From Halicephalobus mephisto (Eukaryota; Nematoda; Chromadorea; Rhabditida; Panagrolaimidae), in NCBI GenBank assembly GCA_009193035.1, contig SWDT01000075.1, forward strand, positions 35,761 to 99,760: a stretch of 64,000 nt of DNA, written 5' to 3'. The notes beneath the pieces are model-generated. The model was not told the DNA's origin. It ran no database searches and saw nothing but the letters and a program-made list of their open reading frames with translations. Positions 22,660-64,000 of the stretch are shown here, in pieces (position 1 is the first letter of the stretch; every line of letters begins with the position of its first letter). A program made the position numbers and the translations under genes.

Positions 22660-25483
22660 ATGAATGTTAATACTGTCATTGGATATCGAGAATCTGCGAA
22701 TTCTATGCCACCATTTACATTTTTCTTTTACGGTCGAAAGCCAGAGGCCATGTTGTACAAAACCGATATAATCTCGACAAAAATGTACTTACTAACAGAT
22801 CCCCGGGAGGAAACTATCTATCATTATCATGAAAAAGAAGTGGAGTATAATAATGTGGCAGAATTCTTTCGTATCTCAAAAGCAGGATTTGTATGTTTCT
22901 AATTGAAGACTATTAAGTACAACTTATGATATTTTCAGATTGAACTACTTGTTAGCGAGCACAGCCAATTATTCCAAGCCTATGAATTTTGCAAAGAAAA
23001 AAAATCAGCGATAATAGAAATTGAAATTACTAAGTATTGGCAGAAAATTCGTGTTAATATGGATTGCTCGAGTGAAAGAAGCCTTATTCCTGAGAACATA
23101 TACACAGGGTATCATGTTTTCATCAAAGTAAATAAGGAACACGGGGAAAATGTAAGATACGATTTCCAAATAAGTACTATAATTCTTTTTTCAGGTTTGG
23201 AGGTCTTTAGTGGATCGACAAATGCACGAAGATTTAAACAATGTGAAATGGCTGGAAAACTATGGAAACCAAAAAGAAGGAACGCTTGAGGATCTAATAG
23301 AAAGGATAAATGAATTAGAAAATGGTAAGGAAATAGGAGTTACATACAAGGTGGAATGCTACAAGAATACAATAGAAGATCAGATAAAGAAATTAGACTT
23401 TATATTGGATATCAGGAAATCTTATGGTTATCAAAAAAATAAGAAAATTCATGATGAACAAGACGTTATGAAAGGTTTGATCGGGAAAATTGACGTTACC
23501 TACAACCAACTAAACCCAAAGAATGACCTACAAAAAGAAGATGAAGTATCGGAACTACTGTCAGCAATTCGAAGTAAATGGACGAAAGTAATGCATGGTA
23601 GCAGATCACTTGATGACAAAGAGTCCAAGAATATCGATACACAATTAAATAGGAAAAGAAAGCCATCTCATAATATTTCAAAGTTTTATCGAGATGACGT
23701 TTCCGAGAGATCTATGGTAAATTCAGCTCACACCAATATCCCTGCAATAGGACATGAACTGTCTGGAACTTCACACTTCTGCAGTATCTGTAAAAGTCAA
23801 ATGATTTGTCTGAAGTGTAGCAGGAGAAGATCATGCAGTACAGACAGCGCACGGGAAAGAATTCAATACCAAAGAAGTCAAGAAGAAAATGTTAAGGAAT
23901 CGAAGACATTGATTCCATTATCGCAAAAGAATAATAATATAGTTGAAAATCAATCGGATAAAGATACAAAAGAGAAAACAGATCAAGAATCATCAGCAAC
24001 TAAGGCTGGAGAAGAAAAAGTATCCGTTGATAACCAGGAATTTACGTCCAACAAATCTTCAACGAATAATAGTAATATCGAGAAAGAACAACCTGAAAAT
24101 AAGAATCTTCAGATTGAATTAAATTCCTCTCATTCGTCCCAAGACAATAATCAATCGAGTAGACAAGCAATTGATTCCTCTAACCACACACAACAGAAGA
24201 TCTTACCTGAATATTCAGAAACCAAACCAAACTCCGATGATGATAGCAATTTACCTACTTCCCAAACTACAACAACCCATGAATCTCAACCATCAAAAAA
24301 CAAAAGTTACGAAGAAGTAAAGTCAAAATCTTTTTCTCTTCCACTTCCAGAACCTCAAGAATTCACAGTAATTTTCCTTGGAGAATCAGGTGTGGGTAAA
24401 TCAACTCTGATCAGCGGTCTCGCCAATTATCTGAACTGGCCAACTTTCACGGAAGCAAAAACAAACGAAATGCAAGTCTGTATTCCTCTCCAATTCAAAG
24501 TCCAGAGAAAAGGAGAAGACAACAAAATCATAGAGACAATAGTAACAGCTGGGAATTCAGAGGAAAACGAAAACTTTAATGACATTGGACAATCAGCCAC
24601 TCAGAAACCAAAAATTCATTATTTTACATTCCAAGGGAACATGGTCAAAGTCATCGATACTCCTGGTCTCTCCGACTCCAGAGGAGTTGAGCAGGATAAG
24701 GAAAATCTCAGACTAATCAGAGAATGCATTCACAACCAGAAGGAGATCCACGCCATCTGCATTGTGTTAAAGTCACACGATAGAATATTTAGACCAGAGT
24801 TTGAGCTAGCTGTTCGTAAATTTCTTTCCTTATTTCCCAAATTAGCTCTAAAGAATTTGTTTTTCTTCTTTACTCATGCTAACGGAAACGTCTTCGGGAT
24901 CGGAGATTCAACCGGACCAGTCAAAGAGATGCAGAAGAAGATCCAGGATTCTCATGAGGAAACATATTCCTTCGAGGGGGAGAACACCTGTGCCGTCGAT
25001 TCAGAGTCCTTCAAATTCCTACTCTGTGAAGAGCGTGGAGTGAAGTACAGTAACCGTCCAAAAGAGGATTTCGACTTTTGTTGGAATGAGAGTGCTGCTC
25101 AAGTCAAGAACTTTCTCACTTTCGTTAGAACAGTGAAACCTGTCGAAAGAGAGGTTATTATAGCAGTTCATGACTTGGCTACTACTGCTCTCAATTTAGA
25201 AAAATTCATAAGAACAAATGACCAATTGACTCCAAAAAGCAGACAAAACCTTGAAAGTGAATCAAAAGTGATTTTGTGTGCAGCAAAAAAGTACTCTATG
25301 GTTACCAAATATCATAGATTGATCACCGATATAGAAGAGTGGGAAATGGATGAATTTCGCCGAGCCTGTGAAAACTGTGGAAAAATTTTAAAAGATGTTC
25401 AAAGCAACTTCTCTGAAGATGTATTTAGACGTGCTGAAGAAGCTGCCAATCTTTTAAAACCACGGAATGAATCAAATACTTAA
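22660..25483 (+). CDS. GTP1: large P-loop GTPase with FYGR-type N-terminus
   Basis: Three exons (22660-22890, 22939-23151, 23195-25483) join in phase 0 across introns of 48 and 43 nt, giving 910 aa. ATG follows an acceptor-like ACTTTAG|G. The N-terminal module starts FFFYGRKPEAMLYK and contains IYTGYHVFIKVNKEHGEN. A Cys cluster lies near residue 341 (CSICKSQMICLKC), then a Ser/Asn/Gln-rich linker. The GTPase domain starts near residue 535: P-loop GESGVGKS (about 544), DTPGLSDSRGVEQD, HNQKEIHAICIVLKSH, then FFFFTHAN where an NKxD/TKxD motif would be expected, and VDSESFKFLLC. A helical C-terminus contains YSMVTKYHRLITDIEEW. It lacks the 28-residue repeat found in its relatives. The open frames are undamaged. 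The role is unknown; nucleotide binding is inferred from the P-loop. Confidence 0.85.
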
Positions 25484-25535
25484 CTTTCTGATTAGTAATC
25501 CTTTGGAATTGCATAATTGTGATTAATTACTATAA

Positions 25536-25541
25536 AATAAA
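25536..25541 (+). terminator. Polyadenylation signal of GTP1
   Basis: AATAAA lies 53 nt after the GTP1 stop codon. Confidence 0.55.
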
Positions 25542-25599: not shown

Positions 25600-26930
25600 T
25601 CCTGAAAGTTTTCGTTTTTTGGCATTATTAAAATATTCTCACTTGGCAATAATAATTTCCTCTGTGACATTGGGATCATTAACAAGATCTGATGAAGATT
25701 CACTTTTAGAAGAACTCTGTTCGGGATTTGATTGAACTGGATTATTCTGGTGGCAGTTATCTACAGTTTTCTTCTTTCAATTGTTAGTTATTTCTTGAAT
25801 TAAGGAAATTAATTCCTTATCTTCTGTCTTTTCCGGATACGTTGTAAATTTTTCATTGGGACCAATTTCCATGAACTTCTTTATCATATTTCCGAGTCGA
25901 AGAAGCGATTGTCCATCAGTTAGTTTGTTCTTTTAAGGTTACTGACCTCGTTTGGTATCTGCATCTCGTAGATTCCTGTATTCACATGGAATTTCTTCGT
26001 CAGTTCCTTCTAATCCTTCTGTAGCTCTATCAAAAACTCGACCATTTTAATAGACCGTTGAGTATTAATATATAATTCTTCGATCTCTAAGTGAGCAATC
26101 ACAGTAACACTATTATTTCCGTTTTTGTGTTCATTAAACTTATCCAAGAGATTTTGAATTCTACCATGTTGTATATGGTCTTTAAAATCTATCAAGTAAG
26201 AACATTCGAAATCGACAACATTGGAAGCTATCATTAAGATTCTCGAAAGTAAATATAGATATCTCGTTCAAACTCTTTCAATCTATAACTTTCTATTTTT
26301 CACTATTAAATATACACTTTTACTAACCTGTAATTTTTTATGAAATTAGTCTTGACATCCAAAAGATAATGATGACCATACTTTACTTTCCAAAAACACG
26401 GTGCATCTTTCTGAGGAATTTCTCATTTCACTTATTTTTTTATTATGATGATTGAAAAGATCGTACCTGGACCTTCTAGTTCATTGAAGAATTCCAAAAT
26501 CCGCAGCAATGCTTCATTTTTTCCACAATCAGACAGATCTGAAATTTTCCGTCTAATTAATCTCATGTCCTCAAAGAAAAATTAACCTTATCAATGTTGT
26601 GTTTTATTGCTAGATGAGTTCCTTGATAAAAGGCTTACCACATCGTCTGTTGACAACTTGAATAAAATAAAGAACTTCAGGTAATTTTTGATAATCTTCG
26701 AAGAATTGATTTCAATAGAAAAAAGCTTTATTGTATCTCTGATTTTTGCTTGTTTTGGGTTATAGGCGAAGATAAGATTTCCAGAAGTCCAGTCATAACC
26801 TATTGGAATTCTTTGTCATTTTGGAGAAAAAAAAGCTAAATCTCTTACACACTGAAATCTTTTTTTATCAATCAAATAAAGTAAATCAGCTTGTCAATTG
26901 ATGTTTTATTGACGGCAACAACATTTGGCA
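25600..26930 (-). pseudogene. Decayed N-terminal part of a GTP5/GTP6-type gene
   Basis: On the minus strand three blocks align with successive exons of GTP6. Around 26810-26640, KNYLKFFILFKLSTDDV matches DYIKFFTLLKLRTLDV. Around 26550-26460, GKNEALLRILEFFNELEG matches GERNESFMRMLDYFQSLD. Around 26390-26340 there is the counterpart of YGHHYFLILNQ. Around 26234-26010, a frame of 74 codons (GRIQNLLDKFNEHKNGNNS) matches HGLWNAFINHKTENNY. Stops and frame changes separate the blocks, and no GTPase domain follows. It lies head to head with GTP2, mirroring the GTP6/GTP7 pair. Confidence 0.7.
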
Positions 26931-27422: not shown

Positions 27423-30400
27423 ATGCCGAAAAGATACTTCTTTGGTAGGGAGAAGATATCCTGTAATGGGCTTAAAATATTAGCCAATGATGGGATAGAG
27501 ATAGATCCAGTGAGGAAAAGAGATGTTGAAGTCAGTGCAACTTTAGTGAGAGATCCTGTAGATGCCTTTTGTAAACTATTCAATATCGCGCCGGTTGATA
27601 TGGTAAGCCCATTTTTAATCATTTTATCGATAGATCTATGTTCAATTATAGCTAGAACTATGTCTCAGTCCATCAACGAAGTTTATGCAATTACTGACAT
27701 TTGTCGTTGAAAATAATAAGAACCATAACGTTGTAGTCAACGTACTATTAGACACCGTTATGAAACATTTTCATGGAGGTATTAAATATTATGGAAACCA
27801 TGTCGTGTTACTTGTTCGTGAGCCAAATCATCAAATATCTCTGGAAGATATAGAACAGGAAGTAGATTTTAACTAGGTGATGTTTCTCGAATAATTTTCC
27901 TATATTGTAGGTGAAGGAACTATTCGCTAATGGAAAAGCTCAGAAGTTTGACTGTTTGGACTTCAAAGCTATGTTTAACTACGAAATACTTGAAGTACAG
28001 CCTATTGGTGGATGTTTAACACAAATTGATGAATGTCGACAACACTCAAATATTCCACTTTATTTTGTTCTCTCCAATGATATTGAAAATTCAAATTTGA
28101 TAATTTCTGAAACAGAACGCACTTACTGCTATTTATCACAGCTTGTTGTGCAGATTTTTATTCTTTTGAAACACTATTACGAAAGTGAAGACTACAAAAT
28201 AGACAATATTAATGATTGTCATCATTTGTCTGACTTGTTGGATGTGCTAACAAACGATGGGAAGAAATTCGTTGCTAATCTTTCTAAAAGTCCTATTCAT
28301 AAAATGCAAAAACAAATCGACGATTTTTGTATCATGAATATGTGGTTAGAGTATCTAATAAGATTAGCAATCCAGCAAAAGAACTCAGAAATGTTCTGGG
28401 ATCACAATGAACACATCACAAATTACACAGATGTCTTGACTCGATTAAATAACCAAGATGTATTCCCATCGAAAAGACAATGGGAATTTACAGAGAACGA
28501 CAGACCTATCATGGTCGGAGATCCGAGAAATTGGATAAGACAAATGATCGTGTCAACCGATGCTTTCCCGATGTTATATCGATATTATGAAGAAGGAGAA
28601 CTAAGTCAATTCACTTGGATTCTAAATAGACACAATGATAAGGAGTCGTTTGTCCAAGTCGATGGACAGAAATACTATCTTGGCTTTACAGAAATCCTAC
28701 CAGAATTACGACATTATTTGGAAACCAGAGCTGTGACTGTCTTCACAATTATGAAAAACAACAAACTAGCAATTAAACATTGTCTTGGATGCTCCAAATC
28801 ATGTACATGGATTTGTCGAACATGTGGATATCTTCTTCGAAATGACGATTTGACATCTGTCATATGTAATTGTGGGACAATCCTGTGGAAAAGTTTGCGC
28901 TTGTATTGTTATGATTGCAGTGTCGCAGCTAAAACTACGTACGAAATATTCAGTAAACCAGTAAATACGAAGAATTCGAGCCACAGAGTATCACACAAGT
29001 CAAATGGTTATATGAATAACGACCAAGATCATAAAAAATCTCACAGTCCACCAACCAGCAACAAAATTGTAATACCAGATGAGGACGAAAGCTCAAAACC
29101 AATAGACACAACTAATAGCCCAATTCCCACGCCAAACATACATCTGACAACATTGCCAGCACCGTCATCTTCAGTGGAATGGGATGCCAATATAACAATC
29201 TACACAGAACATGAGACAATTCCATTCATAGTAGTTCCTCGCTCCCGTTCAGTAATAGCAGAAGAATGGGATAAGAACATAACTACCTACACAGAACATG
29301 AAACAATCTCGTTCAAGGCAGAACCTACGCCTCTTTCAGTTGCAAGGGAAGAGCGGGATGACGATATAATAGTGAACACAGAGGATCAGATGAATCCATT
29401 AACATCAGATGATTCACCGACACTGGAAGAGTGGGATAAGAACATAACAATCTACACAGAACACGAGTCGATTCCATTCCAAGCAGTTCCTCAGCCTCCC
29501 CCAGCAGTCACAGAAGAATGGAACAAGATAAGTATAGTGTATATGGAACATCAAAAGATTCCACTTATAATAATTCCTTCTCCTCCAACAGTCACAGCAG
29601 AGTGGGACAACATTATAACAGAATACAAAGAACATCAAAAGATTCCGCTTATAATAGTTCCTTCTCCTCCAGCAATCACAGCAGAGTGGAACAAAATCAT
29701 CACAGTGCATACTGAGTACGAGACCATCCCACTTTTAATAGTTCCCTCTCCTCCAGCAGTAACAGCAGAGTGGGACAACAATATAACAGTCTATATGGAA
29801 CATCAAAAGATTCCACTTATAATAGTTCCTTCTCCTCCAACAGTCACAGCAGAGTGGAGTAACAATACAACACATTACACAGAACATGAAACACTTCCAT
29901 TCACAGTTGTTTATCCACTTTCTTCAGAATTAACAGAGGAATCCAACAAAAACACATCATTTCACAAACAACATGAGATACTTTCATTTAAGGAACATTC
30001 TCCAGTGGCATCAGAAGAATGGGACGAAAGTTTAACAGAACACAATGAACATGAAACACTTCCATTCAAAGCTGATCCTCCAGCAGTCACAGCAGAGTGG
30101 GACAACATGATCACAGTGTACACTGAACACGACAATATTCCATTCATAGTAGTTCCCCCATCCCCACCACAAGAGTTCACAGTAATTTTCCTGGGTGAAA
30201 GTGGAGTTGGAAAATCGACACTGATCAGTGGTCTCGGTAACTACCTGAATTGGCCCACTTTCGAGGAAGCAAAGAAGAACCAAATGCAAGTGTGTATACC
30301 ATTACAATTCAAAGTCCAACGGAGAGGAGCTGATAAAAAGATCATAGAGACAATAGTGACGGCTGGAGACTCTGAAGACAACGAGAACTTTAATGACATT

Positions 30401-33339
30401 GGACAGTCGGTCACTCAGAAGCCAAAAATTCATCAATTCACTTTTCAAGGAAACACAGTGAAGGTCATCGACACTCCCGGTCTCTCCGACTCCAGAGGAG
30501 CTGAACAGGACAAGAAGAATCTCGAACTGATCAGAGAGTGCATTCACAACCAGAAGGAGATCCACGCCATCTGCATCGTTCTCAAGTCGAACGACGCGAG
30601 ACTGAGACCGGAGTTTGAGTTGGCCCTCCGAGACCTCCTCTCTCTCTTCCCCAAACCGGCTCTCAAAAACGTCTTCTTCTTCTTCACCTACGCGAGTGGA
30701 ACCTTCTTTCGGATCGGAGATTCAACCGGACCAGTCAAAGAGATGCAGAAAGAGATCCAGGATTCTCATGAGGAAACATATTCCTTCGAGGGGAGAACAC
30801 CTGTGCTGTCGATTCAGAGTCCTTCAAATTCCTACTCTGTGAAGAGCGTGGAGTGAAGTACAGCAACCGTCCAGAAGAGGATTTCGACTTTTGTTGGAAT
30901 GAGAGTGCTGCTCAAGTCAAAGATTTCCTTACCTTCATCAAGACAGTCAAACCGATTGAAAAGAAAACTACTCTCGCTGTCCATTACTTGGCCACCGCTG
31001 CTCTTAATTTGGAAGAGTTCATAAGAAATAGTGATCAACTGACTCCAGAAGAGAAGGAAAAGTTCAAAAGAGAGGCGAAAATATTCATCTCTGCAGCCAG
31101 AAAGTACTCCATGGTTACTGAGTATCACAGATTGAAAACTGATGTAGAGCACTGGGACGTGGATGAATTTTGGGGCTCTTGCGAAAACTGTGAAAAAATC
31201 TTGAAATGTTTCAAAAGCAATTTTAATTTAGAAATAGTTACACATTTTAAAGAGGCGTGTGATTCTTTAAGATCGCAGAATTCTACACAGAACTTGCTTC
31301 TTAAACAGGAGGAAGATATAGATTCTTCTTTCGAAATTAGAGAAGAAACTAATGACGAAATTAAGAAGACAGATGATTCCACATTAGATGAACATAATTT
31401 GGGTAAATCATTTTGCTTTAAATATTGAAAATAATAAATTTCAGAGACGACCATACTAACTGCCGAAAATGTAGATGCTGAAAGTGATAAACCATCAGTA
31501 GAAATCGATGATGAGAAAGATGAGACGATTATTCCAGTTGTTAAACAGAACAAAGAATTAACATCATCTGTATCGACTACGGAATCAACACCAGCAATCC
31601 TGAAATTCGAAAGTCGTGAACTTGAATCGCATCCTTCAGCAGTGGGTCCACCTACAACAAGTCCTCCAGCCATACCGGAGGAATGGAATAACAACGTAAT
31701 AACATACGCAGAACATCAGACGATTCCATTAAAAACTGTTTGCATACTTCCGCCTGCAATTACAAAGGAATGGGATAACAGTAAAACAATTTATACAGAG
31801 CATCAAACAATCCCATTCACAGCAGTTCCCTCATCTCCAGCACCAGAGCCCCAAGAATTCACGGTAATTTTTCTTGGAGAGAATGGTGTTGGAAAATCCA
31901 CTCTCATCAATAGTCTTGGCAACTACCTCAGCTGGCTCACGTTAGAGGAGGCCAAAAAGAACCAAATGAAAATTTGTATTCCTTTAAAGTTTAAAGCTCA
32001 ACGAAAAAAAGCCAACGGCAAGGTCATGGAGACAATTGTGACGGTCGGAGATCTAGAAGAAAACGAGAATCCCAACAATATCAAGCAATCGGCTACTCAC
32101 AACCCAAAAGTTAGTCAATTTACCTTCAAAGGAGACAAAATCAGGGTTATCGACACCTTGGAGCTCTTTAATTCCAAAGAATTTGAGCAAGAAAAGAAGA
32201 ATCTCGAACTGATCAGGGAATGTGTTCACAACCAAAAAGAGATCCATGCTATCTGTATTGTCCTCAAGTCGAATGATGTGGACCTCAGACCAGAATTTGA
32301 ACAAACGCTCTGGAATTTCCTCTCCATATTTCCCAAAGTAGCCCTCAATAATGTATTCTTCTTCTTTACTAATGCCAGTCAGACCTTCTTTAAGATCGGA
32401 AATGCAACCGAAGCGGTCAAAGAGATGCAGAAGAAGATCGAGGATTTCCATGAAGCTACATATTCCTTTGAAAGTAGAAATACCTGCACTGTTGACTTAA
32501 AACCCTTCAAATTCCTACTATGCAAAGAACGCGGAATCAAGTACGGCAAGTGTTCAGAAGAAGAATTCAAATACTACTGGAAGAAGAGTGCTGCTCAAGT
32601 CAGCAACTTCCTTAACTTCATCAAGACAGTCAAACCAATTGAAAAGAAAACTACTCTCGCTGTCCATTACTTGGCCACTGCTGCTCTCCGATTGGAAGAG
32701 TTGATAAGTAATAGTAAACTTACAATTGAAAAGGAGAAACTCGTGAATGAATCGAAAATATTCATCTCTGCAGCCAGAAAATACTCCATGGTTACTGAGT
32801 ACCACAGATTGAAGACTGATGTGGAGCACTGGACCGTTGAAGAATTCTTTGAGTCCTGTGAAAATTGTGAAAGGATCTTAAAAAGTATGGACAGCGACTT
32901 CGATCAACAAATATTTACGCGCTTCAAAGAAGCAAGCAATGCTTTAAGACCACAGAGCCTAGTCGTTAAAAAGGAGCAACATATCCATCATTCTCAGCAT
33001 ATTAACAAAGAATCAAGTCCCCAAGTTAAAAAAACTGAAATTACTCCTAATTGCCAACCTCATCAAGGTAAATCACCTTACTTTAAGCTTCAGAAATAAT
33101 TATAATGTTTAGATACAAACATACCACCTATCAAAAATCTAAATGAAGTTGCAAACCATCAAACATCGAGAAAAATCAATGGTACAACAAATAATGTAGT
33201 TGTTCAACCTTTTGTATACACGAATGACGAAGTTCAGCCTGTCCGAGTGTCTACACTAAAGCTGAAGGCGCTTTCTAATGAACGAAAGGTTCAAACTGTT
33301 GAGAAAAAAAGAAAAAGAGTAAGTTTCAATATAGCCTAG
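27423..33339 (+). CDS. GTP2: double-GTPase protein with two repeat arrays (one frameshift)
   Basis: Exons 27423-27602, 27652-27861, 27911-31402, 31445-33067 and 33113-33339 join with consistent phases across 42-49 nt introns, about 1,910 aa. The N-terminus (MPKRYFFGRE; FNYE; IPLYFV) is the type shared with GTP3, GTP7 and GTP8, followed by a Cys-rich segment (CTWICRTCGY, CNCG, CYDC). Then come 12 copies of the 28-residue repeat, GTPase 1 (GESGVGKS near residue 892; DTPGLSDSRGAEQD) and its helical domain, two repeats, GTPase 2 (GENGVGKS) and a basic tail ending KKRKRVSFNIA. GTPase 2 has DTLELFNSKE in place of DTPG, so it is probably inactive. At about 30791 a run of four G replaces the five seen in GTP1, shifting the frame; the downstream frame reads on normally, so this is either a sequencing error or a recent lesion. 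Confidence 0.78.
29173..30162 (+). repeat. 12-copy 84-bp (28-aa) coding repeat in GTP2
   Basis: Each copy follows the pattern (A/E)EW(D/N)x(N/I)IT-x-Y-x-EH-x-x-IP(F/L), joined by VPSPP-AVT linkers, for example AEWDNIITEYKEHQKIPL. The third copy (EERDDDIIVNTEDQ) and tenth copy (EESNKNTSFHKQHE) are diverged. The period is 84 bp in the regular part. The last copy runs directly into the GTPase domain through VVPPSPPQEFTVIFLG. Two further copies precede the second domain at 31672-31835. Confidence 0.85.
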
Positions 33340-34015: not shown

Positions 34016-34021
34016 TTTATT
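34016..34021 (-). terminator. Polyadenylation signal overlapping the GTP3 stop
   Basis: On the minus strand the end of GTP3 reads CAA TAA ATTG. AATAAA includes the TAA stop codon, implying an extremely short 3' UTR or use of another signal. Confidence 0.45.
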
Positions 34022-37000: not shown

Positions 37001-37152
37001 AATATAGATCCCGCTTCTTCAAGAACATTTTTCCTGTCGGCTACTTCAACTATCTGTTCGGAATGAAGATCTATCGTTTTCCCTTCATGTGATCCAACTT
37101 CTAAGTTACCATGCCGCACTTTATCCCGGTTGAAGAAAAATTTTCTGGACAT
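34017..37152 (-). CDS. GTP3: P-loop GTPase with MSxRxFF-type N-terminus
   Basis: Exons 37152-36979, 36935-36744 and 36698-34017 join in phase 0 across 43- and 45-nt introns, giving 1,015 aa. Exons 1 and 2 are 58 and 64 codons, the sizes seen in GTP7 and GTP8. The N-terminus reads MSRKFFFNRD, then LICTIMF, HGHIALVVID, FSLMFDYE and IPLYSYMSSEE. A Cys segment (WLCRECWCL, CNCGTSKF) lies near residues 430-460. A polar linker without the 28-residue repeat leads to the GTPase (GESGVGKS near 658; DTPGLSEYGNSDLD; FFFFTHADRT). THAD is the only copy here retaining an Asp in the G4-like position. The C-terminal helical region is more diverged (KHSLVTPRYSPM). Open frames are intact. The gene converges on GTP2. 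Confidence 0.85.
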
Positions 37153-50971: not shown

Positions 50972-53892
50972 TTACATATTAATACCATTACACTGCTTTT
51001 CAAAGAGCGATAACTTGTTGACAAATTTGGAAAGTCCATCATACACACTTGAATTCTTCACAATAGGCAGAAGTTTATTGATTCCAGCCACCGCTTCCTT
51101 GGAATCAAACCTGATCAAATTTGTTTTCAACCTGTAATACTCGGAAACCATTGTCAGATCTTTGGCAATGAAAAACAACGGCTTCGCCTTTTCATTCAGT
51201 AATTCTCTTGCTTCTTCTGACAGACCGTTCCTCAATGTCTTGTCCGTTCTTAAGAACTCCTCCAACTCCAAGGCAGTTTTCGCAATCTCATGAGCAGCTT
51301 TGATCTTCTCGACATCAACAGGATCGACACTTTTGAGGAAAGCAAGGAAATCCAGCACTTGTTTCGCAGTCTCGTTCCAACAATACTCAAATCTCTCCTC
51401 TGCACTACTGCTGTATTTGATCCCCTGTTCCTTACAGAGCAGGTATCTGAAGGACTCTGAGTCCACGGGACACATGTTCCTTCCTTCGAATTCGAAAGTG
51501 ACTCCATGAGAATCTTTGAACTTCTGTTGGAGTTCCTTCAGGGGATTCAGAATATCCCCGATCCCGAAGTAGGTTCCTCTCGCATAGGTAAAGAAGAAGA
51601 ATACGTTTTTGAGAGCCGACTTAGGGAAGAGAGAGAGGAGGTCTCGAATGGCCAGTTCGAACTGATTTCCGAGTTTGGACTCATTGGACTTGAGAACAAT
51701 GCAGATGGCGTGGATCTCTTTCTGGTTGTGAATGCATTCTCTGATCAATTCGAGGTTCTTCTTGTCCTGTTCAGCTCCTCTAGTGTCAGAGAGACCAGGA
51801 GTATCGATGACCTTGATTTTATTGCTTTGAAAGGTGAATTCATGAACTTTGGGTTTCTGAGTGACCGACTGTCCAACGTCGTTGAAGTTCTCGTTGTCTT
51901 CAAAGTCTCCAGCTCTCACGGTCGTCTCGTCGAATCCACCCTCTTCAAGCTTCCTCTGTACTTTGAACTCCACCGGGATACAAATTTCCATTTGGTTCTT
52001 CTTTGCCTCCTCGAAAGTGGGCCAATTCAGGTAGTTACCGAGACCGCTGATTAATGTAGATTTTCCAACACCACTTTCACCCAGGAAAATTACTGTGAAC
52101 TCTTGTGGTGGGGATGGGGGAACTACTATTAACGGAATAGTGTTGTGCTCAATGTACACTGTGATAATATTGTCCCACTCGGCTGTTACTACTGGAGGAG
52201 AGGGAATTATTAACAGTGGGATGGTCTCGTACTCAGTATATATTGTGACGATCTTATCCCACTCTGCTGTGACTGCTGGAGGATCAGCTTTGAATGGAAG
52301 TGTTTCATGTTCTTTGTATTCTGTTATAATTTTGTTCCATTCTTCTGGTATCACGGGGGGATCAGCTTTGAATGGAAGTGTTTCATGTTCATTGTGTTCT
52401 GTGATGGATATTCGTGTCGTTTTAACATCAGCAATCAATTTCTTCTCTATTCCAGGGGGACAACATATATTTTTGTCTTTGAAATATTGGTAATATTGCG
52501 TCACAAAAGTTTCCATAAGAGCTTTAAGATGAAGTAAATGTTGAATTTTTTCATCATCATTTGAAGCACTTTCAAATCTTTCGACCGCGTTTTTAATATC
52601 TTTTTCATACAATCGATTGTAGTGGTACTTCACATATTCTGTAAATTCAGGTTGGAAATTATCGGATATTTTTTTTAATTCTATGAATAGTTTTACAAAA
52701 ATGTTTTCCTCATACTTATCATCATAAAAAAATGATTTCTTAAGTTTCCCCATAATGGGTTTGTAGTTATTTTCTGTTTTGTGATTTATAAAGGCATTCC
52801 AAAGACCATGAATGGTTTCATTTTCATGATTCTCTTCAAAATCAATCATGTAGGAACAACTGCAATTAAGAATGTTCTCTTCTGGCTCCTTGTCGCTCTT
52901 CCATATTTGTATAATCTAGAAATTCTTTCTACATACTGACATGACAAGGGGGATACTTACTTTGTTTATATTCTTTTTCTCTATGTTTTGGTTTAGGATA
53001 AGGAAGTAATGATGGCCGTAGTTTACTTTGGAAAAGTATTCAAGTGGTACGTAAGATGTTTCCTTTATTTTAATTTCCGCTTGGATCAACATGATAGAAA
53101 TTATCGTACAAGGAGAATCCAAACTTTGAAAGTAGTCCAACATCCGCATAAACGACTCATTTCTCTCACCAAAAAGTCGAATCTAAAATGGTGCCCTTAA
53201 GTTTCTTTCTTCGTCTTCATATTGAAATTGTACTTTTTGATAGTTAAAAGCATTGTTCCAATAAAGATAATTATTGTCAGGAAAACTCACCACATCTAAT
53301 GTTCTGAGTTTGAGTAATGTGAAAAATTTGATATAATCTTCAAAGGATTTTTTTCTGGAGATGTCTCTGGAAACAGTGTAAACTATTGGGGAATACAGTA
53401 GACTTGGTTCAACGCTTTCTAGTGAAGGCGCCAATTGATTTGCAACATCAACTCCAATAGGATATGATTCGCCAACTTTCCAAAAGAAGATCACATAATC
53501 CCTCACTGGCTAAATTCAAAATACTAAATTACAAAATTACGGACAACTTACGGTGATAAATATTGGACCATCGAACCATTGCACAAGTTTATTACCAATT
53601 GCTCTGCATAAATTCTAGAAAACAACTGTATTTTCAAAGTTTAAGGAATTACTCACTGATAAATATGCTGTAATAGACAATACAAACAATAATATTGTAA
53701 CATAGAAACTACATAACAAATATGTTGGTAGATCAGATATAGAATTTATTGTTGAGAGCCCCCATTGAATGATAGCATAATATGCATTGAAATCAACTAC
53801 GGTAGCTTCGGGGAATATTTCCAACTCTGTGCCAGGATCCTGCGGTGAGATATGAGAGATTTACAAAAACAAAGAAACCTTACCCCATTCAT
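50972..53892 (-). CDS. GTP6: membrane-anchored P-loop GTPase
   Basis: Six exons (53892-53884, 53839-53657, 53614-53552, 53509-53291, 53182-52961, 52915-50972) join in phase 0 and encode 879 aa without interruption. Exon 1 encodes only three residues; ATG follows a TTTTTTCTAG acceptor by 11 nt. Residues about 43-63 (YLLCSFYVTILLFVLSITAY) form one predicted membrane helix. Then VIFFWKVGESYPIGVD, GERNESFMRMLDYFQSLD and HGLWNAFINHKTEN. About three and a half 28-residue repeats lead to the GTPase (GESGVGKS near residue 511; DTPGLSDTRGAEQD; TYARGTYFGIGD) and a helical C-terminus (DLTMVSEYYRLKT). The repeats start abruptly after TTRISIT, where GTP5 has an intron. It is divergent with GTP7. The helix suggests the GTPase is tethered to a membrane (inference). 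Confidence 0.85.
52115..52405 (-). repeat. 3.5-copy 28-aa repeat of GTP6
   Basis: A half unit EHNEHETLPF is followed by EEWNKIITEYKEHETLPF, AEWDKIVTIYTEYETIPL and AEWDNIITVYIEHNTIPL, joined to the GTPase by VPPSPPQEF. Confidence 0.8.
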
Positions 53893-54062: not shown

Positions 54063-57000
54063 ATGTCTTGGAGATACTTTTTTAATCAAAATGCGGTATT
54101 TCATGGAAATTTTAAAGTCTCAGCTTATGAAGGAAATAAAAATACTGACGAAACCAAAAGAGTAATTGAAGTTGTTCATGGAAAACAGCTCTTGGAAGCT
54201 GTTAGACAGCTGTTTCAAATTAGCTTCTCCGACATTGTGAGGTTTTCGCTTTGGTACCTAATAATTTAAGATTTCAGTTCAAACTCTGCAAAACTTCAGA
54301 CACGTTTATAAATCTTGTGACTTTTTTGTATCAACATGCTTCGGATAAATGCCTAGTTTGTAAAATTATGTTTCAACCTGTGTATTACACTTCTAAAGCG
54401 TTCTACACCAGCAGATATGGTCATATCGCTTTAATTGTTATTGACAATACAGATATGAATATATGGGTAATATAGTCGGGCTTTCTCTTTATATACCGAA
54501 TGTATTTAGGAAGCCAAAGATGCAATAACCGATATTCTTGATGGAGGTGCAATTCCGGCTATTTTTGGCGCAACAAGATACAGCCTAATGTTTGATTACG
54601 AGCCTGTTGATATTGATTCTATAGCGAGTTGCTTCACTGCGATTCACCGGCGGAATGAGGAATTGGACATTATTCCTCTTTATTCTTATCATAGCTCACA
54701 ACAATGGATAGATATGTCTGCAGCCGAAAAAGACTCGATCGCTTGTCATTTGACGAAGTTGCTAATTTTTAGTTCTCGCATACTGGTACGTTATTATGGA
54801 TCTAAGATGTACATGAATATGGTTGAAATGAGATACAATCAAGAATTTATGTTGATTGAAGAAGTTGAAAGACAAAGTGCTGACCTAACTTATCGGCTAC
54901 AAAATAAAGCTGTTCACAAGATGAAAAATGAAATCAGAGACTTTATGGATATTTTAGCTCAACTTGAAAAATTAATTAGACGAAAAGAGGTTAGAACAGA
55001 TATTAAAAACGATCAGCATAAGCAATGTGTAAGAAGCCTAGGGATGATATTTTATTTGGACTCAATCCCCAGATCAGATGCATGGATCCCAATTAAAGAG
55101 TCGTTTATTCTTGCTGAAGAATGCAAATACTGGAAGAAACGTGTTATATGGCCATTGGGAGAAGAACTGCTTAGTTGTTACTATCATGGGGAACTCAGTG
55201 AATATTCCTGGGTTCAAGATTCCAAAAATAAAGAAACAGAACCCCGTTTAATCATTAATGGAGAGAAATACTACTTCGGGATAGCTATAGTTGAAGAGGA
55301 AGGATGGAGAGAGAAAATTTCACCAGAACAAATAAAGAAAATTCTGAAACATAAATTTGAAGATACAGTCAAACTATTTCAATCTATTAGTTGTCGGTGT
55401 TCACCAACAAAGTCGAGATTGTGGCTATGCGAACGTTGTCTATGGCTGATGCGAGATTTTGGATCGACTGGAATTTTCTGCAGATGCAGACAAAGTGCAT
55501 TGGAGGAGCTGAAAGTGTGTTGCGGTAAGTGTAAGATTGATGAATTTAAACTCTTAATCAAAGTGAAGGACAAAAAAGAAATGGAAGTAGGTGAGCAGTG
55601 GCAAGTATTGGGCAATATTAAGCCTAATATTGATGGTAATCAGATTCACAATAGAAAAGTGGAAACAAATCCAGCAAATATTATCGAACGAGAGAAAAAG
55701 AAACAAGAAAATATAACTGACGTTCCACCTGCAATTGTCCCACCTGTAAGAACAAGTTCACTCAGCAGCTCACATAAGAATGAGCTGCAATCAACTGTAA
55801 CATCCATGGTTTTTGAGATAAATGAAGTCAACGAGAAGAAAACAGGTAAATCCCTTACAAGAGATGAATTCTGTCCTCAACAACATGCAGAAGAACACGA
55901 ATCACAGAACGAAAACAATATTCAAGACTTCAACAAAATCAATGTGGAGCCCGAAGTTGCGCAACGAACTTCGGGATCTGAATCTAACAGAAGTCAAGAA
56001 GGGTACAAAACAAAAACTCCACCTCCTCCACCTCCCATTGAAAACTACATTTCGCCTAATTTCAAAATTCAAAAGTCAACTCAACCTAGTTCAGAGATCA
56101 AGTCATTCACTGATGATTTGAAAAACACTGTTGACAGAAGACGGCAGTCAGGACCAACAGAAAGCAATGCTTATAAAAGAGAAAATTCGACATCAGATTA
56201 CAATGCAGGAACTCCAAATTCTCGACAATCTCGTTCACCTCTAACAATTAATTTCGAATATGAAAAGCAGATACAATCGTCTCCACTATCACAGGTGTTC
56301 ACTCCAGCATCACCAATATCCGATCAACCACACCAAATGATGAAATTAAAGCCCTCACCTGAGCCATACTCTCCAGCGGAAACAGAGGAATGGGACAAAA
56401 GTTTAACAAAATACAAAGAACATCAAACACCTCCATTCAAAGCTGATTTTCCAGAAGTAACAGCAGAGTGGGACAACATTATAACAGAATACAAAGAACA
56501 TCAAAAGATTCCACTTTTAATAGTTCCCCCTCCTCCAGTAGTAACAGCAGAGTGGGACAACATCATCACAGTGTACACAGAACATGAGACAATTCCATTC
56601 ACAGTTGTTCATCCACTTTCTTCAGAATTAACAGAGGAATTTAACAAGAACACATCATTTCACAAACAAAATAAGGATAATCCGTTTAGCGTTCTAACAA
56701 ATGCCCTCGACCACAGTGAAAACACAGAATTTCTTATAAGAAGTGAAAGTAATTCAGGTAAGTAATTTTACAGAAATAATTGGGAGTAACTAACAATTTG
56801 AATTGTAGATATTATTCCTGCTGAAAATGTAGATAATCGTCACACGCCGATGCAATTTAATGATATTGAAAATGATCAATCTAATTACATTTCCAATCAT
56901 GAGAGAGAACGAGTCGTGTCTCCGCACATATCTCAACCACCGACACCTACCATTAACAGAGAAACATCTCTACTTGATCCAGATCTTTCACAATCACTAT

Positions 57001-58430
57001 CAGTACGGAAACCAACCATATCAGAAGACACAACAGATTCCATAATGCCATTCGAACCAATTCTTTTCCATTCATTTGTATTACCTCCGTCACCACCACT
57101 ATATTCTCCTCCACCTCCTCCTCTTCCATCTCCTCCTCTTCCACCTCCTCCTTCTTCACTTCCTCCTCCTTCACTTCCTCCTTCTTCACTTCCTCCTCTT
57201 TCATCTCCTCCTCCTCCACCTCCTTCTTCACCTCCTCCTCTTCCACCTCTTCCTCTTCCACCTCCTCCTCTTCCACCTCCTCCTCTTCCACCTCTACCGC
57301 AAGAGTTCACAGTAATTTTCCTGGGTGAAAGTGGTGTTGGAAAATCAACTCTAATCAGTGGTCTCGGTAACTATCTGAATTGGCCCACTTTCGAGGAGGC
57401 GAAGAAGAACCAAATGGAAATTTGCATCCCTGTGGAGTTCAAAGTACAGAGGAAGCTTGAAGAGGGTGGATTCGACGAGACGACCGTGAGAGCTGGAGAC
57501 TTTGAAGACAACGAGAACTTTAATGACGTTGGACAGTCGATCACTCAGAAACCCAAAGTTCATGAATCCACCTTTCAAAACAACACAGTCAAAGTCATCG
57601 ATACTCCTGGTCTCTCCGACACCAGGGGAGCTGAACAGGACAAGAAGAACCTCGAACTGATCAGAGAGTGCATTCACAACCAGAAGGAAATCCACGCCAT
57701 CTGCATCGTCCTCAAGTCCAATGAGTCCAAACTCGGAAATCAGTTCGAACTGGCCATTCGGGACCTCCTCTCTCTCTTCCCTAAGTCAGCTCTCAAAAAT
57801 GTATTCTTCTTCTTCACCTACGCGAGAGGAACCTACTTCGGGATCGGGGATATTCTGAATCCCCTGAAGGAACTCCAACAGAAGTTCAGGGATTCTCATG
57901 GAGTCACCTTCGAATTCGAAGGAAAGAACATGTGTCCCGTGGACTCAGAGTCCTTCAGATACCTGCTCTGTAAGGAACAGGGGATCAAATACAGCAGTAG
58001 TGCGGAGGAGAGATTTGAGTATTGTTGGAACGAGACTGCGAAACAAGTGTTGGATTTCCTGGCTTTCCTGAAAGGTGTTGATCCTGTTGATGTCGAGAAG
58101 ATCAAAGCTGCTCATGAGATTGTGAAAACTGCTCTGGAGTTGGAGGAGTTCTTAAGAACGGACAAGACATTGAAGAAGGGTCTGTCAGAAGAAGCAAGAG
58201 AATCACTGAATGAAAAGGCGAAACCGTTGTTTTTCATTGCCAAAGATCTGACAATGGTTTCCGAGTATTACAGGTTGAAAACAAATTTGATCAGGTTTGA
58301 TTCTGCGGAGGCAATAAAGGCAGTGAGTGAACTTCTGTCTGTTGTGAAGAATTCAAGTATATATGATGGACTCTCAGAGTTCATGAACAATTTATCACTG
58401 CTTGAAAGAAACTACGACAGAATTGCTTAA
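54063..58430 (+). CDS. GTP7: P-loop GTPase with repeat block and polyproline tract
   Basis: Exons 54063-54236, 54278-54466, 54510-56757 and 56809-58430 join (phases 0, 0, 1) to give 1,410 aa with no disruption. The N-terminus is the GTP3 type: MSWRYFFNQN, FKLCKTSDTF, HIALIVID, LMFDYEPVD, IPLYSYHSS. A Cys-rich segment follows (CRCSPTKSRLWLCERCLWL, CRCR, CCGKC), then a disordered linker and four 28-residue repeats ending exon 3. Exon 4 starts DIIPAENVD, matching the start of the second unit of GTP2 (TILTAENVD), so GTP7 looks like a GTP2-type gene that lost its first GTPase unit. A 70-residue Pro tract precedes the GTPase (GESGVGKS; DTPGLSDTRGAEQD; TYARGTYFGIGD) and a helical C-terminus (DLTMVSEYYRLKT). 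Confidence 0.88.
56385..56690 (+). repeat. 4-copy 28-aa repeat of GTP7
   Basis: EEWDKSLTKYKEHQTPPF, AEWDNIITEYKEHQKIPL, AEWDNIITVYTEHETIPF and the diverged EEFNKNTSFHKQNKDNPF. The third and fourth, with the linker HPLSSELT between them, match the corresponding copies 9-10 of GTP2. Confidence 0.8.
57085..57298 (+). repeat. Coding CCTCCTCTTCCA polyproline microsatellite in GTP7
   Basis: CCTCCTCTTCCA and CCTCCTTCTTCA blocks repeat in 12- and 15-base steps. They encode PPPPLPSPPLPPPP-type sequence with Ser and Leu spacers, comparable to profilin- or SH3-binding tracts. The tract ends at PPLPQEFTVIFLG, exactly where other genes place the 28-residue repeat. Confidence 0.85.
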
Positions 58431-59689: not shown

Positions 59690-60064
59690 CTCATCAGCCT
59701 TCTAGTAGTGATGTATTGTCCGTAAATATTGGAAACTTATCGAATGTATTTGAATTTTCCACATTGAGTAAAAGTTGATCTATTGCTTTCGATCCCTCCA
59801 TTAACTCAGAACTATTTGCGTCTGTTTTAACCTATAATACTCGAAAATCATTATATTGGTGAAAATCTGATAAAAGATTGACTTCATTTTTTCTCTCAGA
59901 TTAATCGCTTCGTACCTCATTTTATTCAAGTTGTTAGTTGATGTTCGAAATCGAAATTTAAACTCTTCTAAGACAGCATTTACGGATTTTTCTATTTCAA
60001 AAAACATTTCTTTTTGACTTAAATTAATAGCTAAAGTTTGATATTTGTATCTTATTTTATCCAA
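59690..60064 (-). pseudogene. Decayed C-terminal helical domain, minus strand
   Basis: The minus-strand frame at 60064-59801 includes KMKSIFYQIFTNIMIFEYYR, aligning with KAKPLFFIAKDLTMVSEYYR of GTP6. 59700-59800 continues the match down to the family's C-terminus. Its GTPase part is missing on the expected (higher-coordinate) side, while a separate GTPase remnant lies on the lower side, so at least two broken copies abut here. Confidence 0.65.
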
Positions 60065-60469
60065 GTTGTTAATTGGTGTTCGAAATCAAAATTTAAACTT
60101 TTCTTTCTAAGAAAAAACGAACATCATTCTTCGATTAGGAAAATCCAGATATTGAATTCTAACTATAAATTTACATAAAAGAGAGTGCAGCTTTTTGGAA
60201 CAGAAAAGCTTGCGAATGCTGTCTTATTGAGAAAAGTCCAAATGTCGATTTTCATGTCTGGCCGTCGACGTTGATAAAATAAAACACTGGCGTTCTTTAA
60301 TAGAGATACTTAAATGACATCATAATTCGAATAGAAACATTGGTGCAGATGATACTCTTGGTGTAGTCTCTTCCGCAAATATGACATGATAGTTATGTTT
60401 GGCATTTTAAATCTTACGGTGGGATATCGGATATTTCAAAAAAGAAGTTAACTCTGCATTCTTCATTAA
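60065..60469. other. Spacer, diverged remnants
   Basis: 60060-60110 partly repeats 59930-59965 (AAGTTGTTAGTTGATGTTCG against AAGTTGTTAATTGGTGTTCG). No gene or clear remnant is identifiable in the rest. Confidence 0.4.
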
Positions 60470-60645
60470 GGCAAAGTCCAGAAAGGGAAGATAAAATCAT
60501 TTAATACCAGATGGAATTTTTATGGTTGTTATCAATTGCAGCAAGTGGTTGGATTGTTTGCGTCTTTCATTGTTCCAGGTGTGTCTGAGTAAAAAAAGAC
60601 GAAATTATTTTTCTTCTTCAATATTTACTAATATTTTATTTCAGA
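60470..60645 (+). promoter_or_regulatory. 5' region of GTP8 with conserved motif and acceptor
   Basis: GCGTCTTTCATTGTTCCAGG followed by TGTGTCTGAGTAAAAAAAG (60560-60597) matches the motif before GTP7. TAATATTTTATTTCAG ends at 60644, one base before ATG. CAGAAAGGGAAGATAAAATC at 60479 resembles the reverse acceptor of a minus-strand partner whose ATG is gone. Confidence 0.55.
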
Positions 60646-63600
60646 ATGTCGTGGAGATACTTTTTTGATCAAGATACAGTGATTCACAGCGGTGTTGAAA
60701 TCTCAGCATATAAAGGGAATAGAATTGAAGACAATATTAAAAAAGTAACTGAAGTTGTTCATGGGGAATATGTTATCTCATCTGTTAGACAACTTTTTCA
60801 GATCGACTTTATTGACATGGTGAGTTTTTCAGTTTGATAATTACTGTAATAATGAGATATTTTAGTTCGAGCTTTGTAAGACTTCAGATACATTTAAGAA
60901 ACTCTTGACTTTTCTCTTTCGAACCACTTCCAAAAAAAGTTTAATTTGCAAAATTATATTTCAACCTTTTCATTATACTTCTAACACATATTTTACAACC
61001 AAACATGGTCACATTGCGATAATTGTTATTAATGATATAGACATATCCACACAGGTAATATAATTGAAATTAACTTTTACCAAACATAAATTTAGAATGC
61101 TAATAATGCAATTATAAACATTCTTGACGGATATCCTATTCCAGACATGTTTGATGGGGCGAAATTTAATCTTATATTTGACTATGAGCCCGTTGATACT
61201 GATTCTATTGAGACTTGCTTTGCTGAAATTAATCAAAGAAATGATCAGTTTAACACTATTCCTCTTTATTCTTATCGGTCCTCCTATGAGCGGTTAAATT
61301 TGTTTAAAGTCGGAAAAGATTCAACTGCCAGTCATCTGACAAAGTTACTAATTTTTAGTTCTTACATTCTTGAGAAATATTTTGGATCTAAAAATTACAT
61401 AGATAAAATTGAAATGAAATACGATCGAGAATTTACGTTATTTGAAAACATTAATAAACAATCTAGCAAGCTCATCAGTGATCTTCAAAATAAAGCTGTT
61501 CACAAGATGGAAAACGAAATCAGAAACTTTATGGACCTTTTAACTCAACTTGAGAGATTGATCAGAGAAAAGGAGGTTAGAATGGATATTAAAAACGATC
61601 AGTATAAACAATGTGTAAGAAATTTAGATCAGTTATTTTATTTGGACGTAATTCCGAAATCAGATGCATGGATTCAGATTCAAAATTCTTCGTTTGCTCT
61701 TTCTGAGGAACGAGAAAACTGGAAGAAACGTGTTATATGGCTTTTGAGAAGAGAACTACCTGATTACTATGGTGCTGGAGAATTAAGCACATATTCTTGG
61801 GTTGTAGATTCAAAAACCAAAGAAACAGAACCCCGTCTAATCATTAACGGAGAGAAATATTACTTTGGGATAGCCAGTGTTGAAGAAAAACAAATAAGAA
61901 ACAATATTTCGAAAGACTCACCAAAAAATCTTACGAAATATTCATTCCGAGATAAGGATGAATTATGTAAATCCATTACTTGTCCCTGTTCACCAGCAAA
62001 AAAGAGATTGTGGTTATGCGAACGTTGTTTGTGGTTAGTGCGAATGCATGGACCAACTGAAGTTTCCTGTAGATGCACGAGAAACACATTGGAGAAGATG
62101 AAGGTATACTGCAATGGATGTCAAATTGATGAAGTTGGAACAGAGCCGATTGTGGATAAAGAGACAGAACCAATTGTACAACACCAAATACTGGATGACA
62201 TCAATAGTAATGCTAACAGAAATCAAATTCAAGGTAAGAACGCAGAAGAAGTTCCAAAAACTGCTAAATCAGAAGAGATAAATAACAAAGAAAGTAAACC
62301 TGAATCGGTTTCGACAGTACCTCTCAGAGCTCAAAAAAAGACTGGATTTCTTGCTGAATTAACCGCAGAAAGATTAAAACAAAAGACACCTACTGTCTCT
62401 AAAATTAATGAATACAATGGAACAACTGTCACTGAGTCACAGTCGGAAGATACATGTCTTTCTCACAAAAATACGAAAGACAATCAACTAGAAAAAGAAA
62501 ACACCATCATTCAAAAGTCTGACAAACAGAGTGGAAAATCCACACCTGGTGATCAAACCCGACGATCTGAACCGCAAATGAACCAAAAAGATCACAACAA
62601 TAAACAACCATCTTCAATACCAAATATAGTCATTACTCGGCAAATGAACGACATGACCTCGCAAATAAATTACCAAGAAGTAAAGAACATTAATCCGAGC
62701 TCAATATCATCTTCATCGAAGTGCACTGATTCAATAAACAAAACAAATTACCCCACCAAACACCACATCATAAGAACCGGTAATGATATTCCAGTAGCAG
62801 ATAAAAAAGAAGATCCAAAATCAACGGAAAATTCCGATATTAGAAACGACAACATACAATCAAATTTAGCATCTCCTTTACGTTCTCCCGTAGCGGCGTC
62901 AGAATGTAACCATGATATAACAACATATACAGAATACGAGACAATTCCATTCCAACTAGATCTTCGAGCATTAGCAGAAGAATGGAACAAGATCATCACA
63001 GCGCATACTGAGCATGAGACCATCCCACTTTTAATAGTTCCCTCTCCTCCAGTAGTAACAGCAGAGTGGGACAACATCATCACAGTCTATATAGAACATC
63101 AAAAGATTCCACTAATAATAATTCCCTCTCCTCCAGCAGTCACAGCAGAATGGGACAATATTGTCACAGTGTACATTGAGCACGAGACAACTCCACTAAT
63201 AATAGTTCCCCCATCCCCACCGCAAGAGTGCACAGTAATTTTCCTGGGTGAAAGTGGTGTTGGAAAGTCAACTCTGATTAGCAGTCTCGGTAACTATCTG
63301 AATTGGCCTACTTTCGAGGAAGCAAAGAAGAACCAAATGGAAATTTGTATCCCGGTGGAGTTCAAAGTACAGAAGAAGCTTGAAGAGGGTGGATTCGACG
63401 AGACAACGGTGAGAGCTGGAGACTTTGAAGACAACGAGAACTTCAACGACGTTGGACAGTCGGTCACTCAGAAACCCAAAGTTCATGAATTCACCTTTCA
63501 AAACAACACAGTCAAAGTCATCGATACTCCTGGTCTCTCCGACACCAGGGGAGCTGAACAGGACAAGAAGAACCTCGAACTGATCAGAGAATTCATTCAC

Positions 63601-64000
63601 AACCAGAAGGAGATCCACGCCATCTGCATTGTCCTCAAGTCCAATGAGTCCAAACTCGGAAATCAGTTCGAACTGGCCATTCGAGACCTTCTCTCTCTCT
63701 TCCCTAAATCAGCTCTCAAAAACGTATTCTTCTTCTTCACCTAGCGAGAGGAACCTACTTCGGGATCGGAGATATTCTGAATCCCCTGAAGGAACTCCAA
63801 CAGAAATTCAAAGATTCTCATGGAGTCACCTCGAATTCGAAGGAAGGAACATGTGTCCGTGGACTCAGAGTCCTTCAGATACCTGCTCTGTAAGGAACAG
63901 GGGATCAAATACAGCAGCAGTGCAGAGGAGAGATTTGAGTATTGTTGAACGAGACTGCGAAACAAGTGCTGGATTTCCTTGCTTTCCTGAAAGGTGTCGA
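60646..64000 (+). CDS. GTP8: P-loop GTPase, runs off the window (frameshifts near the end)
   Basis: Exons 60646-60819, 60866-61054 and 61096 to beyond the window join in phase 0 (introns 46 and 41 nt). The N-terminus is the GTP7 type: MSWRYFFDQD, FELCKTSDTF, HIAIIVIN, FNLIFDYEPVDTD, IPLYSYRSS, with a Cys-rich segment CPCSPAKKRLWLCERCLWL. A polar linker and four 28-residue repeats lead to the GTPase (GESGVGKS near residue 839; DTPGLSDTRGAEQD; EFIHNQKEIHAICIVLKSN). Compared with GTP7, one base is missing at about 63743 (creating TAG) and again near 63830, 63857 and 63945, so the frame is lost four times in about 200 bases although similarity remains high. This pattern suggests poor consensus quality near the window end. 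The true end of the gene is outside. Confidence 0.8.
62900..63215 (+). repeat. 4-copy 28-aa repeat of GTP8
   Basis: SECNHDITTYTEYETIPF, EEWNKIITAHTEHETIPL, AEWDNIITVYIEHQKIPL and AEWDNIVTVYIEHETTPL, then VPPSPPQECTVIFLG leading into the GTPase. Confidence 0.8.

What the first reader, a model, noticed from the sequence alone, without database searches (positions are those of the whole stretch)
22660..64000. Tandem cluster of eight large, multidomain P-loop GTPases (ten GTPase domains) plus remnants
Seen: eight genes on both strands share GESGVGKS, DTPGLSD, IHAICIVLKSN and VDSESFKFLLC blocks and a helical C-terminus, but differ in N-terminus, linker and domain number. Known, from memory: similar blocks occur in uncharacterised expanded AIG1/septin-like GTPases of some invertebrates and fungi. 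Inference: a fast-evolving effector or immune-type array comparable in genome behaviour to GIMAP, IRG or GBP clusters.
Basis: partly seen in the sequence, partly recalled or inferred. Interest (0 to 1): 0.87.

Follow-up and report, generated by a model that had tools for sequence, protein, structure and literature searches.

The report
Mix-and-match GTPase gene cluster in worm
Eight neighbouring genes in a roundworm, likely a Halicephalobus species, encode large relatives of immune GTPases, and their front ends and GTPase engines have mismatched histories, so they have likely been swapped between genes, as would suit a fast-changing defence family whose role is still untested.

Summary
In detail: eight genes, ten GTPase domains, both strands, running to the contig end. 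All ten domain-bearing frames pass the Pfam AIG1 cut-off; a confident model (pLDDT 91) lies nearest Toc34 and GIMAPs. GIMAP-type G4 and IAN motifs are absent in 40 of 40 domains. New here: N-terminal modules and GTPase cassettes have different histories. In five of eleven chosen pairs (three independent sets) N-blocks are nearly identical (dS 0.04-0.08) but GTPases old (dS 1.3 to saturated); other genes share 92-97% identical GTPases behind modules only 24-33% alike. Over 11 genes the two are uncorrelated (Mantel p 0.77); halves of each part do correlate (8 genes). GTPases are constrained (median omega 0.19), close N-blocks hardly (0.61-1.21). Best reading: GTP switches with exchangeable recognition modules, plausibly defence. 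Function is inferred; four of eight genes carry frame breaks, and the sharpest mosaics lie outside the window.

The parts
22660..25483 (+). Gene 1: module B (type B3) + AIG1-like GTPase (domain from 24353); three exons read by eye (introns ~22891-22938 and ~23152-23194)
27423..33339 (+). Gene 2: module A with Cys-rich finger + 28-residue repeats (12 scored) + two GTPase domains (30164, 31849); one-base frame break near 30795; 3' end approximate
34017..37152 (-). Gene 3: module A + GTPase (35111-34092); no repeat scored in the linker
38609..41759 (-). Gene 4: module B (type B2) + GTPase (39738-38941) whose C-terminal part loses frame through several small indels
44487..50080 (-). Gene 5: module B (type B1) + two repeat linkers (15 repeats scored) + two GTPase domains (47778, 45627); last C-terminal helices out of frame; 3' end approximate
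50972..53579 (-). Gene 6: module B (type B1, 82% aa to gene 5) + 4 repeats + intact GTPase (52111-50975), used as reference and for the model
54063..58430 (+). Gene 7: module A + repeats (3 scored) and proline-rich linker + intact GTPase (57297-58424)
60646..64000 (+). Gene 8: module A + 4 repeats + GTPase (63217-), cut by the contig end, frame breaks in the last ~260 bases
29177..30178 (+). Array of 84-nt/28-residue repeats (EWDxIITVYTEHExIPLIIVPSPPAVTA type), 10 scored in this frame; further arrays in genes 5, 6, 7, 8
28781..28918 (+). Cys-rich finger at the end of module A in gene 2 (C..C / WxCxxC / CxC / CxxC); the same feature in genes 3 (last pair incomplete), 7 and 8
25932..26222 (-). 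Remnant of a module B1 (30% aa over 103 residues)
59813..60154 (-). Remnant of a GTPase C-terminal part (28% aa over 115 columns)

Best explanation
This is a tandem cluster of eight AIG1-like GTPase genes in a nematode, likely a Halicephalobus species, in which N-terminal modules and GTPase cassettes of the same gene have different histories, so the two parts have likely been exchanged between genes by ectopic recombination, and the proteins would act as GTP-driven switches that carry interchangeable recognition modules, probably in cell-intrinsic defence. Shown: the gene layout; the AIG1/Toc34/GIMAP-type fold of the model; the P-loop and switch threonine; mosaic histories with junctions at or shortly before the first strand of the GTPase domain and, in one tested pair, at the stop codon; strong constraint on the GTPase and weak constraint on recently copied N-blocks. 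Inferred: that GTP binding drives dimerisation across the G interface as in GIMAPs, Toc34 and septins; that the N-modules (a helical part plus a Cys-rich finger in type A) bind the variable target; that the 28-residue repeats are an extendable linker; that exchange is favoured because targets change, as in defence against microbes or parasites.
For: Mosaic: C324a-A and C128-A share an N-block of 1620 nt at 96.4% that ends ~70 nt before the GTPase in C324a (~800 nt before it in C128), and their GTPases are 52% alike; the same C324a GTPase is 92.8% nt identical over 1103 nt to that of C255-A, whose module is 28% alike. Of eleven pairs chosen for similar N-blocks, five (three independent sets) have N dS 0.040-0.077 and GTPase dS 1.33 to saturated. 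With window genes: gene 2 and C128-A, module 24%, GTPase 97% (over the 211 residues before gene 2's frame break); gene 3 and C324a-A, 33% and 92%; genes 5 and 6, N dS 0.31, first GTPase dS 2.16; gene 6 (module B) and gene 7 (module A), GTPase dS 0.26. Module vs GTPase similarity over 11 module-A genes (55 pairs): rho -0.12, Mantel p 0.77. Control on 8 of them: module halves rho 0.83 (p 0.0008), GTPase halves 0.46 (p 0.016), module vs GTPase -0.17 (p 0.82). Past the stop codon C324a-A and C255-A are no more alike than shuffled sequence (0.47 against 0.48). Constraint: GTPase omega median 0.19, range 0.07-0.39, 231 of 780 pairs; N-block omega 0.61-1.21 in the eight pairs with dS under 0.1. Fold. 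Motifs: 40/40 P-loop, 40/40 G2 Thr, 38/40 DxxG.
Against: No expression, infection or biochemical data. The published RNA-seq finds no heat response of the set and speculates about abiotic stress. N-block omega near 1 also fits relaxed constraint: in the closest pair coding and noncoding divergence are equal (pN 0.034, pS 0.040, noncoding 0.040; 0 stops against 3.2 expected). The three N-block pairs that include window genes (4, 5, 6) have omega 0.32-0.55 at dS 0.31-0.47, which is ordinary. Some genes are congruent: C233-B/C162-B 90% and 95%, C324a-B/C233-B 92% and 83%, C128-A/C16-A 66% and 88%. Past the stop codon gene 3 is at the upper edge of shuffled values against C324a-A (0.59, shuffle maximum 0.58) and C255-A (0.57, maximum 0.59) over 110 nt, so the sharp end at the stop is shown for one pair only. 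Four of eight window genes carry frame breaks. The G4 motif is not canonical, so GTP specificity is unproven. The sharpest mosaic pairs lie on the rest of the contig and on other contigs, not in the window.
Confidence: 0.5

Rival explanations
1. A stress or physiology family: the GTPases serve abiotic stress survival (hypoxia, other subsurface stress) and were amplified for dosage; recombination is a by-product of tandem duplication with no adaptive role.
For: Weinstein 2019 proposes hypoxia or other nonthermal stress for the H. mephisto AIG1 genes; Hsp70 is expanded in the same genome.
Against: Dosage selection would keep whole proteins alike; here modules are only 24-33% alike between genes that share a 92-97% identical GTPase, and recently copied N-blocks change with far weaker constraint than the GTPase.
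Confidence: 0.25
2. Neutral mosaic: ordinary ectopic gene conversion copies stretches between similar genes while N-blocks drift under weak constraint; the cluster is partly a graveyard.
For: N-block coding change equals noncoding change in the closest pair; several frame breaks and remnants; junctions sit at conserved sequence.
Against: The most recent copies are N-blocks, not the conserved GTPase (dS 0.04-0.08 against 0.198 or more); the compared N-block frames stay open; the finger of module A and part of module B have relatives in Panagrolaimus proteins, so they are kept over long times.
Confidence: 0.35
3. Assembly artefact: the mosaics are chimeras of a repetitive family.
For: The family is repetitive, and contig C324 ends inside it with poor sequence.
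Against: Shared segments differ by about 4-13% from their partners, above the 1.15% heterozygosity published for H. mephisto, and mosaics occur in several independent sets on at least six contigs (C324, C128, C255, C1, C233, C16).
Confidence: 0.08

Closest known systems
H. mephisto AIG1 expansion (Weinstein et al. 2019, PMC6872716)
   Same: Same Pfam domain, genome size within 3%, joint AIG1 and Hsp70 expansion, nematode; 63 loci and 84 domains there, 59 matches here.
   Different: The abstract, the passages returned and the whole AIG1 section describe copy number, trees, proposed transfer from a fungus and no heat response; they do not describe N-terminal modules, the 28-residue repeats or exchange of parts. 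The rest of the paper was not read.
GIMAP/AIG1 family of vertebrates, plants and molluscs
   Same: P-loop, switch threonine, DTPG, Pfam AIG1 score, fold; tandem arrays and added domains also in Biomphalaria (passages).
   Different: No NKxD or T[RK]x[DE] G4 (0 of 40) and no RxxxF[ND]N IAN motif (0 of 40); long N-terminal modules; a C-terminal helical part in the model.
Toc34/Toc33 plastid import GTPases
   Different: No plastid in animals; about 15% identity; other architecture.
Panagrolaimus AIG1-type proteins
   Same: GTPase 36-48% identical in the named full hits; module A finger (P0018, hhalign E 5e-7); module B (P0022, BLASTP E 8e-13).
   Different: The window's domains form a clade with other own rows, apart from Panagrolaimus, in the tree; in Panagrolaimus davidi the GTPase is fused to Hsp70.

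Membership tests
AIG1/GIMAP | Pfam AIG1 (PF04548) above curated cut-off | tested here: met
   10 of 10 domain-bearing window frames over 27 bits; 57 of 59 genome matches, 5 of them only with their neighbours in the frame
AIG1/GIMAP | G1 GxxxxGK[ST], G2 threonine, G3 DxPG | tested here: met
   40/40, 40/40, 38/40 (scored as DxxG) of stop-free domains
AIG1/GIMAP | G4 NKxD or T[RK]x[DE] type | tested here: not met
   0 of 40; TYAR 12, TYAS 11, THAD 4, others 13; molluscs and corals vary here too, TxGD and TxCD/E (passage)
AIG1/GIMAP | conserved box of the GPHAxLLV type between G3 and G4 | tested here: not met
   0 of 40 by the strict pattern; a different box, IHAICIVLKSN, sits there (22 of 40 exactly)
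AIG1/GIMAP | G5/IAN motif RxxxF[ND]N | tested here: not met
   0 of 40; a few of the 40 end at residue 205-225 and may not reach it
AIG1/GIMAP | GIMAP/Toc34-type fold | tested here: met
AIG1/GIMAP | coiled coil or membrane anchor at the C-terminus | not tested
   helices predicted; no coiled-coil or membrane program run
Septin | Pfam Septin (PF00735) above cut-off | tested here: not met
   best 20.5 bits against 26.2
IRG/GBP | IRG- or GBP-type domain | tested here: inconclusive
   weak matches to Irgb10 and other IRGs around the P-loop only; no IRG or GBP profile listed at E 0.1
H. mephisto AIG1 expansion | genome of H. mephisto | tested here: inconclusive
   size and two expansions fit; nearest module relative found is Halicephalobus sp. 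NKZ332 at 57%; the rRNA search did not complete

The most novel reading that the evidence does not exclude
An invertebrate repertoire built like receptors by evolutionary segment exchange: one conserved GTPase engine cassette and several families of fast-changing recognition blocks are continually re-paired by recombination at a fixed junction, giving a nematode a renewable set of intracellular sensors or effectors.
Probability: 0.3. Interest if true: 0.82.

Novelty: new variant of a known kind. Interest (0 to 1): 0.56.

Why it matters
C. elegans has no such family (0 AIG1 domains against 84 in H. mephisto; one distant MTG1-type match at relaxed stringency), and what AIG genes do in invertebrates is described as uncertain (abstract listing). 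Showing that engine and front end are separate, exchangeable evolutionary units turns that into a testable question: which part carries specificity, and against what. It also warns that trees built on the GTPase domain alone do not describe the history of the genes.

Full report
What is there. The window is bases 35,761-99,760 of a 99,760-base contig (C324) of a 59.9-Mb, 331-contig assembly. It is an animal by its semaphorin gene and a nematode by its short introns ending TTTTCAG (that this is the nematode style is recalled) and by the kinship of its GTPases. It is most likely a Halicephalobus: AIG1-type GTPases (59 matches) and Hsp70 (74 exon-wise matches, only 73 of 210 candidates scored) are both numerous, as published for H. 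mephisto (61.4 Mb, 63 AIG1 loci, 84 domains; passages), and the only protein that the homology search returned for module A is from Halicephalobus sp. NKZ332, 57% identical over 40% of the query (that search misses distant relatives, see below). The species is not proven: the rRNA search did not complete. H. gingivalis, a horse parasite (passage), is not excluded.

Genes. Tblastn finds ten GTPase domains in eight genes. Starts and introns were read by eye. Genes 2 and 5 carry two GTPases joined across a short intron. N-terminal parts fall into module A (genes 2, 3, 7, 8) and module B of three subtypes (gene 1 B3, gene 4 B2, genes 5 and 6 B1). Module A ends in a Cys-rich finger with five invariant and two nearly invariant cysteines over 13 sequences. 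Between module and GTPase five genes have an 84-nt/28-residue repeat, 38 copies scored in seven window frames; none was scored in genes 1, 3, 4. The first exons of genes 7 and 8 begin MSWRYFF and show no signal peptide by eye; no secretion program was run. Four genes carry frame breaks (gene 2 near 30795; gene 4 between about 38,990 and 38,860; end of gene 5; gene 8 in the last 260 bases of the contig). Those of gene 8 look like contig-end sequence error; the others may be error or decay.

The new result: parts with different histories. For 11 module-A genes (4 in the window, 7 elsewhere) module identity and GTPase identity are uncorrelated (55 pairs, rho -0.12, Mantel p 0.77). The method sees congruence where it exists: on 8 of these genes halves of module A correlate (rho 0.83, p 0.0008) and so do the first and second hundred columns of the GTPase (0.46, p 0.016). 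Extreme cases run both ways. Same module, different GTPase: C324a-A/C128-A 92% and 52%; C233-A/C255-A 93% and 55%; C255-A/C1-A 88% and 48%; C16-B/C233-C 88% and 62%; genes 5/6 82% and 63%. Same GTPase, diverged module: gene 2/C128-A 97% (over 211 residues) and 24%; gene 3/C324a-A 92% and 33%; C324a-A/C255-A 92% and 28%. Gene 6 carries module B and gene 7 module A, yet their GTPases are at dS 0.26. At the DNA level the C324a-A/C128-A N-block is 1620 nt, 96.4% identical without a gap, starts 135 nt before the ATG and stops about 70 nt before the GTPase in C324a and about 800 nt before it in C128. The C324a-A/C255-A GTPase cassette is 1103 nt at 92.8%, starts at or just before the first strand and ends at the stop codon, beyond which the two are as unlike as shuffled sequence (0.47 against 0.48). 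Against gene 3 the same flanks sit at the upper edge of the shuffles (0.59 and 0.57 over 110 nt), so a short shared 3' flank is possible there. Not every pair is incongruent: C233-B/C162-B agree along 3000 nt at 95% (90% and 95% aa), C324a-B/C233-B are 92% and 83%, C128-A/C16-A 66% and 88%, genes 7/8 60% and 84%.

Rates. GTPase omega: median 0.19, 0.07-0.39 in 231 of 780 pairs with dS 0.05-1.5. N-blocks: of 11 pairs computed, chosen for similarity, 8 have dS under 0.1 with omega 0.61-1.21, and 3 (all with window genes) have dS 0.31-0.47 with omega 0.32-0.55. Five of the 11 join N dS 0.040-0.077 to GTPase dS 1.33 or more; they make three independent sets. In the closest pair, 465 codons give pN 0.034, pS 0.040, noncoding 9 of 224; no stop where 3.2 are expected. 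So recently copied N-blocks evolve with little constraint but open frames; diversifying selection is possible but not shown, and relaxed constraint is a live rival.

Wider family. The GTPase has relatives in Panagrolaimus, bdelloid rotifers, a mite, a beetle, a sea urchin and several fungi (120 of 262 listed). In a 43-row tree the nematode rows, except five divergent own rows, form one group of 25 (98/97), the window's domains belong to a group of seven own rows (99/98), and the three fungal rows fall outside the 25. Module A's finger recurs in a Panagrolaimus superbus protein and more weakly in an unnamed metagenome protein, and module B in Panagrolaimus sp. JU765, so parts of this layout are likely older than the expansion.

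How it likely works (inferred). GTP binding drives dimerisation of the GTPase heads; the linker repeats set reach; the N-module recognises the target; exchange of blocks gives new pairings without losing the engine. Defence is a natural selective setting for a conserved engine with fast, exchanged front ends, and AIG genes answer immune challenge in a snail (abstract passage), but nothing here tests it. The published hypothesis is nonthermal abiotic stress.

Verdict. The expansion is known; the architecture and the exchange of cassettes are, within the papers searched, not described. New variant of a known kind.

Noticed in passing
P0013, P0015 (Panagrolaimus davidi): The same AIG1-like GTPase is fused to an Hsp70 domain in one protein; AIG1-like GTPases and Hsp70 are also the two families expanded together in H. 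mephisto, which hints at a functional link.
   Followed up: partly
window 18609-21346 +: Semaphorin gene (Sema and PSI domains) directly upstream of the cluster.
   Followed up: no
window 1-18600: Stretch full of tandem repeats, largely AT-rich, with no gene recognised; its frames were not searched against any library.
   Followed up: no
window 38243-38551 -: Short frame with a GGNCLLS stretch between genes 3 and 4; resembles the start of an OTU-type protease by recall only.
   Followed up: no
P0121 (Halicephalobus sp. NKZ332): Module A is joined there to a DUF8206-type (PF26633) Cys/His region without a GTPase in the deposited partial protein; may be another module pairing or an annotation gap.
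   Followed up: no
C233 and C258 (L024-L027): A second, divergent type of GTPase domain (32-35% identical) follows a cluster-type domain on the same strand in three places.
   Followed up: partly
L033 2005-3051 -: A module A with no GTPase found in the 2.0 kb fetched downstream.
   Followed up: no
window 60504-61107 + and L017: The 5' part of gene 8 (flank, first exons) is about 75% identical over ~600 nt to that of C324a-A and C128-A.
   Followed up: partly
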